Assembly: GCA_030654225.1 (NCBI GenBank) | Contig: JAURXY010000031.1 | Coordinates: forward strand, 65,431 to 99,943 | Direction: 5' to 3' | Source: a bacterium | Lineage (GTDB): Bacteria; Patescibacteriota; Minisyncoccia; Moranbacterales; UBA2206 | Length of the DNA: 34,513 nucleotides | Shown here: piece by piece, positions 4,420 to 28,380 of the stretch | How positions within the stretch are numbered: position 1 is the first letter of the stretch | Layout of the letters: every line of letters starts with the position of its first letter | Made by a program: the position numbers and the translations under genes | The notes under the pieces: model-generated | The model's database searches: none | What the model saw: the letters and a program-made list of their open reading frames with translations, nothing else | Told to the model about the DNA's origin: nothing

Positions 4420-4508
4420 CCGATTCGAATCTTCGAATGTATTCGAATTTACGAATGTATTTTTTGTGCTTATTCGTAGATTCGCATGTTATTCGTTGAT
4501 TCGCATCG
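4420..4508. repeat. Long palindromic element, CCGATKCGAA family, copy A
   Basis: CCGATTCGAATCTTCGAAT..TTCGAATTTACGAAT / ATTCGTAGATTCG..ATTCGTTGATTCGCATCG inverted arms. Confidence 0.85.
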
Positions 4509-4513
4509 CTTAT

Positions 4514-5742: not shown

Positions 5743-5748
5743 CAACTG

Positions 5749-5821
5749 TGCGCCCACCGGGACTCGAACCTGGGACCGTTTGCTTAAAAGGCAACTGCTC
5801 TACCAACTGAGCTATGGGCGC
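5749..5821 (-). tRNA. tRNA-Lys(UUU)
   Basis: GCGCCCATAGCTCAGTTGGTAGAGCAGTTGCCTTTTAAGCAAACGGTCCCAGGTTCGAGTCCCGGTGGGCGCA; full cloverleaf, anticodon TTT, CCA not encoded. Confidence 0.95.
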
Positions 5822-5862
5822 ATTCTATATTTAATTTATTTTACATAACCTCCAAAATAATA

Positions 5863-5931
5863 CCACTGATCGGACCCCTGCCTACCGGCAGGCAGGCTGT
5901 CCGCCTTTGGCGGAAACTGAACTATGGACGC
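5863..5931 (-). pseudogene. tRNA-Lys-like 5' fragment fused to nested palindromes
   Basis: GCGTCCATAGTTCAGTTT + CCGCCAAAGGCGGACAG + CCTGCCTGCCGGTAGGCAG + GGGTCCGATC; compare tRNA GCGCCCATAGCTCAGTT. Confidence 0.75.
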
Positions 5932-5989
5932 AAAAATAACTTTTCTATTATATCACTCTCTTTTCTTTAGTCAATAGAAACTTAACTAA

Positions 5990-17764: not shown

Positions 17765-17775
17765 ATAATTTCAAT

Positions 17776-17867
17776 CCGATGCGAACCTACGAAACTAATG
17801 CGAATCTACGAAATTTTATTTTGTATTTTGTTCGTAGATTCGAATATCATTCGTAGTTTCGAATCGG
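17776..17867. repeat. Long palindromic element, CCGATKCGAA family, copy B
   Basis: CCGATGCGAACCTACGAAACTAATGCGAATCTACGAA / TTCGTAGATTCGAATATCATTCGTAGTTTCGAATCGG. Confidence 0.9.
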
Positions 17868-17868
17868 T

Positions 17869-18636
17869 TTAGCAGATTTTATATTTACCCTTCGCGTCGT
17901 CGCAAATTACTTTTCCATGATCCAAAACAATTACTCTTTTGGCAGCTTTATTGACGATATCATGATCATGGCTAGCTAAAATTACAGTTGTGCCTAATTT
18001 ATTTATATCCAAAAGAAGTTTCACTATTTCCATAGAACTTACTGGATCCAAATTTCCCGTTGGCTCATCCGCCGCAATCACATGAGGCTTATGAATAAGT
18101 GCTCGCGCTAAAACTACTCTCTGCTGTTCACCACCTGAAAGTTGACGTGGAAATTTTTCCATCTTGCCTCCAAGCCCAACAATGTCCAAAATTTGTGGCA
18201 CATCTTCCAAAATTTCACTTCTTGGCGCTCCACAAACTTCCATAGCATAAGCTACATTTTCAAAAACAGTTTTTTTAGAAAGCAATTTGAAGTCTTGAAA
18301 AATTGTGCCAATTCTTCGTCTATGATATGGCAGTTTTCTTCGACTAATCATGTCCAGAGAAACACCGTCAAAATACACCGAGCCCTCTGTCGGCATTTCC
18401 TCAGCATAAATCAATTTCAAAAGAGTTGATTTTCCCGCTCCGCTGTGTCCAACGACTGAAACAAATTCTCCCTTCTTAATTTCTAAATTTATATCCGTCA
18501 GTATATCTTGATCATTTTTGAAAAACTTGCTCACATGATCAAACTTAATAAGCACCGGAAAATGATCCTCTTGCATTTCTCTCGAATATTTTTCTTCACT
18601 ACTTTCTTCGTTTTTAATTTTTGACTCTCTTTTCAT
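17869..18636 (-). CDS. ftsE: Cell division ATP-binding protein FtsE
   Basis: Walker A GHSGAGKST, signature LSGGEQQRVVLARAL, Walker B VIAADEPTG; adjacent to ftsX. Confidence 0.96.
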   Translation of the reverse strand: MKRESKIKNEESSEEKYSREMQEDHFPVLIKFDHVSKFFKNDQDILTDINLEIKKGEFVSVVGHSGAGKSTLLKLIYAEEMPTEGSVYFDGVSLDMISRRKLPYHRRRIGTIFQDFKLLSKKTVFENVAYAMEVCGAPRSEILEDVPQILDIVGLGGKMEKFPRQLSGGEQQRVVLARALIHKPHVIAADEPTGNLDPVSSMEIVKLLLDINKLGTTVILASHDHDIVNKAAKRVIVLDHGKVICDDAKGKYKIC

Positions 18637-23560: not shown

Positions 23561-23610
23561 GCCATCTTAGCTCAGTTCCCGCCAAAGGCGGACAGGGTCC
23601 GAGCGACGGC
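23561..23610 (+). pseudogene. tRNA-Thr-like 5' fragment with palindrome replacing the D-loop
   Basis: GCCATCTTAGCTCAGTT-CCCGCCAAAGGCGGACAGGGTCC-GAGCGACGGC versus intact GCCATCTTAGCTCAGTT-GGTA-GAGCGACGGT. Confidence 0.85.
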
Positions 23611-23642
23611 CGAATTATATGTAATGTTTTACAAACACACAA

Positions 23643-23715
23643 GCCATCTTAGCTCAGTTGGTAGAGCGACGGTATCGTAAACCGTAGGTCATCAGTTCGA
23701 TCCTGATAGATGGCT
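23643..23715 (+). tRNA. tRNA-Thr(CGU)
   Basis: GCCATCTTAGCTCAGTTGGTAGAGCGACGGTATCGTAAACCGTAGGTCATCAGTTCGATCCTGATAGATGGCT; loop ATCGTAA. Confidence 0.94.
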
Positions 23716-23721
23716 CATTTG

Positions 23722-23779: not shown

Positions 23780-24139
23780 TCACAAAAATTCTTCTATCTT
23801 TAAAAATACTCCTTCTAAATTATCGTTAATTTCATTATTCCAAAATCTTATCACTTCATATCCTTGTCCTTCTAAGAATTCTGTTTTTGTTTTATCATAT
23901 CTCTCCTGTTTTTCTTCCTTATGCTGAAATCCATCAATTTCTATAATAATTTTCTTTTCAATACATATAAAATCTACCACATATTTTCCTATTTGATATT
24001 GCCTTCTAAATTTAAAATTTCTAAAATTTCTATTTCTTAATTTTGACCAAATAATTATTTCTTGCGGTGTAGAATTTTTTCTTAAATTTCTATTTCTTTC
24101 TAAAACTTGTTCCGATAATTTTGTTTTTATCCTTTTCGT
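23780..24139 (-). CDS. DUF559/Vsr-like endonuclease-domain protein; open frame lacks an evident ATG/GTG/TTG start for the full domain
   Basis: ...KLSEQVLERNRNLRKNSTPQEIIIWSKLRNRNFRNFKFRRQYQIGKYVVDFICIEKKIIIEIDGFQHKEEKQERYDKTKTEFLEGQGYEVIRFWNNEI; the track starts at an internal GTG (23980). Confidence 0.8.
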   Translation of the reverse strand, partial: TKRIKTKLSEQVLERNRNLRKNSTPQEIIIWSKLRNRNFRNFKFRRQYQIGKYVVDFICIEKKIIIEIDGFQHKEEKQERYDKTKTEFLEGQGYEVIRFWNNEINDNLEGVFLKIEEFL

Positions 24140-26584: not shown

Positions 26585-27169
26585 TTATATTGTATCGTAC
26601 GCCTTCTCAATCGCTTGAATATTTTTGTCGCAATTTTCTTTGCCCAATTTTTTTTCAAAAATATTCCTAAATTCTTCAATCATACTTTCCATTTTTATCA
26701 CTCCAGAAACTTGCACAAATTTTCCCAAAATTACGGTGTTGGGACGAGGTTGGCCGATAATCGAAAGTGAAATTCCACTCGCATCAATCGGATGAATTTT
26801 ACCTTCGAATTTTCCGCCTTTTTGAATTAATTTTTCTCGCACTTCATGTTCCTGCATTTGTGTATTTATTATCAAAAATTCGTCTTTATCCAAATTGAAA
26901 GCCACTTCTTGTGAATCCAAAAGTGTGTCGTCTAAAACTACCACCAAATCCGGATCAACGACCGGTTCATGCGTTCTAATTTCATGATCGGAAATTCGCA
27001 AATATGTCTTAGTTGGCGCGCCAGACCTTTCCGGTCCAAAACTTGGAAAAGCTTGAACAAATTTATCCTCGTGAGTTCCCGCTTGCGCCAAAATTTCCGC
27101 CGTCGTCTTTGCGCCTTGCCCGCCACGAGCAAAAAAAATAACTTCAAAAATATCTTTATGATTTTTCAT
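26585..27169 (-). CDS. porG: 2-oxoacid:ferredoxin oxidoreductase gamma subunit
   Basis: FFARGGQGAKTTAEILAQAG; FPSFGPERSGAPTKTYLRIS. Confidence 0.94.
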   Translation of the reverse strand: MKNHKDIFEVIFFARGGQGAKTTAEILAQAGTHEDKFVQAFPSFGPERSGAPTKTYLRISDHEIRTHEPVVDPDLVVVLDDTLLDSQEVAFNLDKDEFLIINTQMQEHEVREKLIQKGGKFEGKIHPIDASGISLSIIGQPRPNTVILGKFVQVSGVIKMESMIEEFRNIFEKKLGKENCDKNIQAIEKAYDTI

Positions 27170-27173
27170 ATAA

Positions 27174-27364
27174 CCGATGCGAAATTACGAATTAAATGCG
27201 AATCTACGAACAACTTGTAATTAATAGATTTTTTAGTTGAATTTATTTTATTGTACCATAAATATTTAGATACACAAAACGCCCCCTTATTGGAGCGTTA
27301 TGAGATTTATATCTAAAATGTTTTAATTTCGTAGATTCGTTCTTGTTTCGTAGTTTCGCATCGG
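27174..27364. repeat. Long palindromic element, CCGATKCGAA family, copy C (expanded central loop)
   Basis: CCGATGCGAAATTACGAATTAAATGCGAATCTACGAA ... TTCGTAGATTCGTTCTTGTTTCGTAGTTTCGCATCGG. Confidence 0.88.
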
Positions 27365-27366
27365 CT

Positions 27367-28380
27367 TTATTTCGCCAACTGCTCCTCAATATCCTTTTTC
27401 AAATCTTCCGCGCTAAGCGCTCCAGTCTCTACTTTGTCACCCACGAAAATTGTCGGCGTTCCCGTAATACCAAAATTCTGCGCATCGCTAATGTCAGCAT
27501 TAATCTTATCCTGATATTTTTTGTTATCCAAACAGCCATTAAAATCATTGATGTTTAGTCGAAGCATCAGCGCATATGATTTGAAACTAGCGTTGTCTTT
27601 TGTCTCTCCCCATTGTGATTGTTTAGCATAAAGGATATCAGCATATTCCCAAAACTTGCCTTGTTCCTGTGCACACATTGAAGCCAAAGCCGCGCTCTGG
27701 GCTTGCGGATGAATTTCGGTTAGTGGAAATTCTTTGAAACTAAACAAAACCTTGTCTTGATAGTTTTTCATGGTGTCGCGCAGTGATTTATAGAAAACTT
27801 TGCAATATGGACATTGGAAATCGGAAAAAATAACAACCTTGACTTTGGCGTCTTTGTTACCAAAAGTTGCATCGCTTGTACTTACCTGCGGCAACTCCAG
27901 ATATTTTCCTACGGGCGCTCCTAATGTTTGCACATTCAAAACATATTTGTCGCCTTTGGCATAGAATAGCGACTGGGCTTCAGTATAAAATTCAGTTTGA
28001 TCAAGATTTTTGGCAAAAATGAAAGCTGGCAAAGTTTTGATTCCAAACTCACTGATCAAATTTTTTCCTTGCTCACTGTCAGAATTTATTTTCTCGGCAC
28101 TAATTGTTGGTGAAACTCTTCGAAGCCAAGCCAAAATTTCTCCTGGATCGCAAGCTTCACAAGTGTCATCTGTGATAACAGAAATTGACACCGCTGGATC
28201 GCTATAGGCCACCCACGTTTTTCCATTCGCTTCAAAAATGTCAGATTTATTGAGATTTTTTTGTGAATAACCACTACCCCTCATCATTTGTCCTGCATCC
28301 ACAAAAAGACTGCCCAAAAGAAGTCCCACCAAAAGAATCACCAGAGAAATTAGATTCTTAATTTTATTTTTTTCTTCCAT
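27367..28380 (-). CDS. DsbA-family thiol-disulfide oxidoreductase with two thioredoxin-like domains
   Basis: N-terminal TM; DDTCEACDPGEILAWL...IKTLPAFIF domain; second domain VVIFSDFQCPYCKVFY...GITGTPTIFVGDK. Confidence 0.88.
   Translation of the reverse strand: MEEKNKIKNLISLVILLVGLLLGSLFVDAGQMMRGSGYSQKNLNKSDIFEANGKTWVAYSDPAVSISVITDDTCEACDPGEILAWLRRVSPTISAEKINSDSEQGKNLISEFGIKTLPAFIFAKNLDQTEFYTEAQSLFYAKGDKYVLNVQTLGAPVGKYLELPQVSTSDATFGNKDAKVKVVIFSDFQCPYCKVFYKSLRDTMKNYQDKVLFSFKEFPLTEIHPQAQSAALASMCAQEQGKFWEYADILYAKQSQWGETKDNASFKSYALMLRLNINDFNGCLDNKKYQDKINADISDAQNFGITGTPTIFVGDKVETGALSAEDLKKDIEEQLAK

What the first reader, a model, noticed from the sequence alone, without database searches (positions are those of the whole stretch)
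5749..5931. Second tRNA 5'-half/palindrome chimera, upstream of intact tRNA-Lys
On the minus strand GCGTCCATAGTTCAGTTT resembles the 5' end of the adjacent tRNA-Lys (GCGCCCATAGCTCAGTT), then runs into CCGCCAAAGGCGGACAG...GGGTCCGA, the same junction and sequence as in the tRNA-Thr chimera. Two independent loci share the same architecture (chimera, then ~30-40 nt, then intact tRNA), pointing to a recurring element or mechanism targeting the tRNA D-arm rather than random decay.
Basis: partly seen in the sequence, partly recalled or inferred. Interest (0 to 1): 0.85.

Follow-up and report, generated by a model that had tools for sequence, protein, structure and literature searches.

The report
Broken tRNA relic beside its replacement
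In this small-genome bacterium the leader of the lysine tRNA gene holds the broken front half of an older copy of that tRNA, pierced by two short palindromes, and the same scar, often with a complete new tRNA sitting inside the broken old one, recurs at many tRNA genes across the Patescibacteria, which suggests that their tRNA genes are repeatedly invaded and replaced from within.

Summary
On the minus strand at 5931-5866 lies the 5' part of a tRNA-Lys gene (15 of the first 17 bases match the intact gene). Its D-loop holds two perfect palindromes, and the intact tRNA-Lys starts about 40 nt downstream. CCGCCAAAGGCGGACAG occurs exactly twice in the 1.0 Mb genome, both times in such chimeras (Lys, Thr). 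At least eight of the 39 tRNAs have one.

Over 197 tRNAs of seven same-genus genomes, tRNA 5' ends recur upstream 24 times on the same strand and 0 times on the opposite one. 3' ends recur downstream 10 versus 0. Many loci are complete nests: an intact tRNA, flanked by an inverted repeat, inside the split copy of an older tRNA of the same type. Sister species carry that older allele intact. Further cases lie in other families of the phylum.

I read the Lys chimera as the 5' scar of a tRNA gene that was invaded and replaced. The palindromes are later, duplication-free insertions into hairpin loops. Mobility and enzyme are inferred; no autonomous element was found. A functional leader is not excluded, because the Thr chimera is almost invariant across two genera. 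I found no description in the papers held.

The parts
5947..5974 (-). promoter-like TTGACT-16-TATAAT upstream of the relic; shared with the relic-free tRNA-Lys loci of G020 and G019
5915..5931 (-). 5' relic of tRNA-Lys: acceptor 5' strand and D-arm 5' strand up to the D-loop T (GCGTCCATAGTTCAGTT)
5900..5914 (-). palindrome 1, TCCGCCAAAGGCGGA, in the D-loop
5877..5896 (-). palindrome 2, CCTGCCTGCCGGTAGGCAGG; 9 distinct sites in the genome, 4 of them in tRNA relics
5866..5876 (-). GGTCCGATCAG, continuation of the D-loop and D-stem 3' side of the relic
   Evidence: same module in Thr, L089 and L093
5822..5865 (-). A+T-rich spacer between relic and intact tRNA; absent from the empty site in G020
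5748..5821 (-). intact tRNA-Lys(TTT), the only gene with this anticodon in the genome
5717..5743 (-). terminator-like hairpin directly after the tRNA; aligns with the corresponding stretch of the empty site in G020
23561..23612 (+). 5' relic of tRNA-Thr(CGT) with D-loop palindrome CCGCCAAAGGCGG and GGTCCGAGCGACGGCCG
   Evidence: conserved in G017, G020, G030
23643..23716 (+). intact tRNA-Thr(CGT)

Best explanation
The chimera is the 5' scar of an older tRNA-Lys gene that was broken and functionally replaced at its own locus. General process: (1) an inverted-repeat-flanked cassette carrying a complete tRNA of the same type inserts into a loop of the native tRNA gene. The native gene is split into a 5' half upstream and a 3' half downstream, and the inner tRNA takes over (architecture shown at other loci; use of the old promoter inferred). 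(2) Short palindromes later insert, without target duplication, into loops of the now redundant relic (order shown for Ser-TGA). (3) Recombination between the two near-identical 3' halves removes one of them and leaves '5' relic, spacer, intact tRNA' as at Lys and Thr-CGT; recombination between the 5' halves leaves '3' relic only' as at Arg-CCT (inferred). The relic is presumably transcribed as a leader and removed by RNase P (inferred). What moves the cassettes and palindromes is unknown.
For: Side and strand rule over 197 tRNAs of 7 genomes: 5' end upstream 24 vs 0 on the opposite strand, 3' end downstream 10 vs 0, wrong side 3; outside the family 4 and 8 of 167, opposite strand 0 and 1. Complete nests: G000 Thr-TGT and Ser-TGA, G018 and G021 Ser-TGA, G019 Ile, Arg-GCG and Arg-CCT, G021 Arg-CCT, G016 Thr-CGT and Pro, G028 Gln, G033 Phe, G121/G122 Leu, plus L083, L089, L244, L266, L300 (read by eye). 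Allele evidence: the broken outer Thr-TGT of G000 matches the intact tRNA of G020/G021/G019 except for the insertions and a 4-nt loss, and in G020 at a syntenic locus; the inner one is a different allele. In G019 Ile the outer is the G000/G016/G020 allele and the inner is identical (75/75) to that of G021. Order-wide, 9 of 13 elements with terminal repeat CCCGCACCATTTTT enclose an intact tRNA inside a broken tRNA and 2 more sit in tRNA relics. Empty sites: Lys, Ser palindrome, and a 30-bp double palindrome in a G020 Tyr D-loop. Palindrome 2: 4 of 9 genomic sites in about 0.6 kb of relics, Poisson P about 3e-11.
Against: No 3' half of the Lys relic exists next to the gene or elsewhere in the assembly, so the nested stage at Lys itself is not seen. 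The intact Lys allele equals the commonest genus allele, so replacement by a foreign allele cannot be shown at this locus. The Thr-CGT relic has at most one change in 57 nt between genera, slow for a dead scar. No target duplication, transposase or autonomous partner was found for the cassette repeat.
Confidence: 0.62

Rival explanations
1. The chimera is a functional structured leader: a tRNA mimic in the 5' end of the pre-tRNA that controls processing or expression of the following tRNA.
For: The Thr-CGT chimera is nearly invariant over 57 nt in G000, G017, G020 and G030 (two genera) while spacer and upstream flank diverge. It lies just behind a promoter-like site. The Lys and Thr leader-tRNA transcripts fold better than shuffles (z -2.2 and -3.3), though the tRNA itself contributes to that.
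Against: Presence is sporadic: Thr-CGT empty in G018/G019, Lys empty in G019/G020. Different tRNAs are affected in each genome and hairpin families differ. Many relics lie 3' of the tRNA. The Thr relic is predicted to pair with the 3' acceptor strand of the intact tRNA, a misfold. Horizontal exchange of the locus could also give the identity.
Confidence: 0.15
2. Ordinary partial tandem duplications of tRNA genes that decay, with palindromes landing in them by chance.
For: Tandem relic units exist (L091 Asn with 2 units, L084/L095 Val). The Lys relic carries two C-to-T changes.
Against: 5' halves nearly always upstream and 3' halves downstream, and complete nests with inverted repeats at the split. 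Inner and outer are different alleles. Every one of the eight relics read in G000 carries a palindrome.
Confidence: 0.13
3. Attachment-site scar of a larger tRNA-targeting integrative element whose body was lost.
For: tRNA genes are classic integration sites; a 5' tRNA fragment upstream of an intact tRNA with a recombinase-bearing insert is described in Caldiarchaeum (PMC3293823).
Against: Inserts are about 100-250 bp and read as gene-free. Split points vary among D, anticodon and variable loops. No integrase among the neighbours scanned. Palindromes and inverted repeats are unexplained.
Confidence: 0.05
4. A split or intron-containing tRNA whose parts are spliced or trans-spliced.
For: Nested outer halves keep matching acceptor strands, and the repeats at the split are complementary.
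Against: No 3' half for the Lys relic anywhere in the assembly; an intact tRNA-Lys(TTT) exists; several outer genes have lost parts of the D or anticodon arm.
Confidence: 0.04

Closest known systems
Disrupted tRNA-Thr locus of Caldiarchaeum subterraneum (PMC3293823)
   Same: A 5' tRNA fragment lies upstream of a complete tRNA of the same type, attributed to a mobile element entering the tRNA gene; alleles differ between relatives.
   Different: There a 1.8-kb insert with a putative recombinase in an archaeon; here 100-250 bp cassettes in bacteria, flanked by inverted repeats, carrying the whole replacement tRNA, plus palindromes in tRNA loops.
MITEs (miniature inverted-repeat elements)
   Same: Short, terminal inverted repeat CCCCGCACCATTTTT; about 120-bp copies without a tRNA exist (G009, G020, G021, G028).
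   Different: No clear target duplication, no transposase partner found, cargo is a tRNA gene, targets are mostly tRNA loops.
REP/BIME palindromes mobilised by RAYT (Y1/HUH) transposases
   Same: Short G+C-rich palindromes scattered between genes; Y1_Tnp genes in 6 of 7 genus members.
   Different: No constant tetranucleotide beside 20 palindrome copies; G020 carries palindromes in tRNA relics but no Y1_Tnp match.
Rickettsia palindromic elements
   Same: Palindromes inserted in both coding and RNA genes (from general knowledge).
   Different: Sequence homology and reading-frame conservation were not tested; here the hits are loops of redundant tRNA relics.
Split/trans-spliced tRNAs (Nanoarchaeum, Caldivirga)
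   Same: Separated tRNA halves with complementary extensions at the split (from general knowledge and PMC10714607).
   Different: An intact cognate tRNA lies between the halves and is taken to be the working copy.

Membership tests
MITE | terminal inverted repeats, short | tested here: met
   for the tRNA cassettes and cargo-free copies; the Lys relic itself has only palindromes
MITE | target-site duplication | tested here: not met
   palindrome insertions in Ser (G000 vs G018) and Tyr (G020 vs G000) are clean without duplication; no consistent duplication at cassettes read by eye
MITE | related autonomous transposon with the same ends | tested here: inconclusive
   exact 14-mer repeat in 133 genomes of the order gave only short copies by eye; degenerate ends not searched
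REP/RAYT | Y1 HUH transposase in the genome | tested here: inconclusive
   PF01797 in 6 of 7 genus genomes, absent in G020, which nevertheless has palindrome-bearing tRNA relics
REP/RAYT | conserved tetranucleotide 5' of the palindrome | tested here: not met
   20 flanks of CCTGCCTGCCGGYAGGCAGG show no constant base quartet
tRNA-targeting integrative element | integrase gene and cargo between direct repeats of the tRNA end | tested here: not met
   relic and tRNA are about 40 nt apart; neighbouring genes scanned are a BNR-repeat protein, DnaJ, ribosome recycling factor and unknowns
split tRNA | matching 3' half elsewhere and no intact gene | tested here: not met
Rickettsia palindromic element | sequence homology to RPE families | not tested
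   no RPE library at hand

The most novel reading that the evidence does not exclude
Patescibacteria harbour self-rescuing tRNA cassettes: minimal mobile elements whose cargo is a complete tRNA and whose target is the cognate tRNA gene, so that each insertion destroys an essential gene and supplies its replacement, a natural break-and-rescue system that turns over the tRNA set of the host.
Probability: 0.3. Interest if true: 0.9.

Novelty: new variant of a known kind. Interest (0 to 1): 0.72.

Why it matters
tRNA genes are usually treated as the most stable genes and as passive integration sites. If tRNA genes in Patescibacteria are repeatedly invaded and replaced from within by cassettes carrying their own tRNA, this gives a concrete route for tRNA turnover and horizontal exchange in genomes with about one copy per anticodon, and explains odd tRNA-like fragments that annotation tools would miss or miscall. 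The relics also record where palindromic elements land (tRNA hairpin loops), a target choice that selection would hide in working tRNA genes.

Tried and rejected
A search of 50,697 phage records with the relic found nothing. Rfam found only the three intact tRNAs in the window. The idea that CCGCCAAAGGCGG is an abundant genomic repeat was rejected: 3 copies in 1.0 Mb, 2 in tRNA relics. RAYT-type REP origin of palindrome 2 was tested and is not supported by its flanks. Two hits of the cassette repeat in G139 (L248, L252) look like prepilin coding sequence (NGAGFTLIE-type) and were set aside. Literature searches for nested tRNAs, pseudo-tRNAs with palindromes, or split tRNAs in CPR bacteria found no description; most subscription journals are not held. 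Alignments of G000 vs G018 for Gln and for Thr-CGT were poor: the Gln flanks do not align at all, and in Thr-CGT the tRNA aligns but the upstream gap placement is arbitrary.

Full report
Setting. The window is contig C3:65431-99943 of a 1.0-Mb, 34-contig genome. ARAGORN and Rfam find tRNA-Lys(TTT), tRNA-Gln(CTG) and tRNA-Thr(CGT) in the window. The genome has 39 tRNAs, with one gene per anticodon except Asp, Trp and Met.

The minus strand reads promoter-like TTGACT-16-TATAAT, GCGTCCATAGTTCAGTT, palindrome TCCGCCAAAGGCGGA, CAG, palindrome CCTGCCTGCCGGTAGGCAGG, GGTCCGATCAG, an A+T-rich spacer, then the intact tRNA-Lys and a terminator-like hairpin. The Thr chimera has the same module without the second palindrome. 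The motif CCGCCAAAGGCGGACAG is found exactly only at these two places in the genome.

It is part of a wider pattern. Reading the flanks of all 39 tRNAs shows truncated cognate copies on the same strand beside Lys-TTT, Thr-CGT, Thr-TGT, Ser-GCT, Ser-TGA, Leu-TAG, Gln-TTG and, on the 3' side, Arg-CCT; all eight carry palindromes in D, anticodon or T loops or arms. I took 197 tRNAs from seven same-genus genomes and asked whether the first or last 18 bases of each tRNA recur within 260 nt, other tRNAs masked. With at most 4 mismatches, 5' ends recur upstream 24 times on the same strand and never on the opposite strand; 3' ends recur downstream 10 times and never on the opposite strand; the wrong side gives 2 and 1. 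In 167 tRNAs from 29 genomes of other families of the phylum the counts are 4 (5' upstream) and 8 (3' downstream), with 0 and 1 on the opposite strand. Some of these are nests read in full (L228, L244, L266, L300). A scan of 85,488 species genomes for CTCAGTT, 0-3 bases, CCGCCAAAGGCGGA gave 13 stretches; the titles that name a lineage are all Patescibacteria, and most hits lie just upstream of an intact tRNA with the same or a similar 5' strand.

Nests explain the side rule. At many loci the broken outer tRNA has its 5' half upstream and its 3' half downstream of the intact tRNA, with an inverted repeat at the split, often TCCCGCACCATTTTT..AAAAATGGTGCGGGA. Searching 133 genomes of the order for CCCGCACCATTTTT gave 13 distinct elements after setting aside two prepilin-coding hits: 9 enclose an intact tRNA inside a broken tRNA, 2 are about 120-bp elements without cargo inside tRNA relics, 2 are such elements between genes (classification by eye). 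Where the outer anticodon region survives (Thr-TGT, Ile-GAT, Arg-GCG, Leu-TAG, Gln-CTG, Phe-GAA, Met-CAT) it agrees with the inner tRNA (by eye).

The outer tRNA is the old native gene. At the syntenic Thr-TGT locus G020 has a single intact tRNA; in G000 that same tRNA is present but split, with a palindrome near the D-stem, a cassette in the anticodon loop and a 4-nt loss, and the cassette holds a different Thr-TGT allele (the alignment program placed the gaps differently, the exon reading is by eye). In G019 the split Ile tRNA is the allele of G000, G016 and G020, and the inner one is identical to that of G021. In G019 Arg-GCG the outer parts match the intact gene of G000 and G020, while the inner tRNA is unlike any other in the genus set.

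The palindromes are a separate, duplication-free insertion. G018 and G000 share the Ser-TGA nest, but only G000 has CCTGCCTGCCGGTAGGCAGG between GAGT and GGTT. A 30-bp double hairpin sits at the same D-loop position in a Tyr-type copy of G020 relative to the intact Tyr of G000. The second Lys palindrome sits cleanly inside the Thr-type module in the same way. Four of the nine genomic sites of this palindrome lie in about 0.6 kb of tRNA relics (Poisson P about 3e-11). Flanks of 20 copies show no constant tetranucleotide, so the REP/RAYT hallmark is not met, and G020 lacks a Y1 transposase match.

Lys itself. G020 and G019 have the same promoter and terminator region with the tRNA between them; G000 has about 100 extra bases, the relic plus spacer, between promoter and tRNA. 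No matching 3' half exists in the assembly. The simplest reading, by analogy with the nests, is a former nest from which the duplicate 3' half was lost by recombination. This last step is inferred; the direct alternative, a partial duplication, is not excluded for Lys alone.

What speaks for function. The Thr-CGT relic differs by at most one base in 57 between G000, G017/G020 and a different genus, G030, while spacer and upstream flank diverge. This could mean constraint or recent exchange of the whole locus; its patchy presence (absent from G018, G019 and, in the exact search, from the other members of G030's genus) favours exchange. Folding does not suggest a helpful leader for Thr: its relic is predicted to pair with the tRNA's own 3' strand. 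The Lys relic folds separately from its tRNA.

Limits. The genomes are largely metagenome assemblies; the Ser-TGA nest recurs in three independent assemblies (G000, G018, G021), which argues against artefact. The phylum sample favours high-scoring tRNAs. Novelty rests on open-access papers only.

Noticed in passing
G000 C22, C33, C14 (L051, L061, L054): upstream of tRNA-Gly, -Pro, -Trp: An inverted-repeat element of roughly 120 nt (GTGCCTGCCAAACTTTCTTA..TAAGATAGGAAAGTTAGGCAGG), sometimes in two copies, ends at the 5' end of these tRNAs; a similar stretch precedes Thr-TGT in G021.
   Followed up: no
window 4470-4513, 17773-17870, 27168-27370: A second inverted-repeat family (TTCGTAGATTCGCAT.. 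/ ..ATGCGAATCTACGAA), unrelated to the tRNAs.
   Followed up: no
G000 C19:38678 (L003): The third CCGCCAAAGGCGG copy is a compound palindrome that may lie inside a protein gene.
   Followed up: no
G000 C5, about 100 nt upstream of tRNA-Asp (L052): A tRNA-like sequence GGGAGAG..CTCTCCC with an enlarged anticodon loop that ARAGORN does not call.
   Followed up: no
L188 (G018 C69:1-140): A tRNA-Ala-like gene with an Ile-type 5' end and an altered D-arm, perhaps a recombination product or an assembly error.
   Followed up: no
L091 and L084/L095: The relic-plus-spacer unit is tandemly repeated upstream of tRNA-Asn and, across two contigs, probably tRNA-Val.
   Followed up: partly
window 23780-23980 minus strand: DUF559 (restriction-endonuclease-like) reading frame just downstream of tRNA-Thr.
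   Followed up: no
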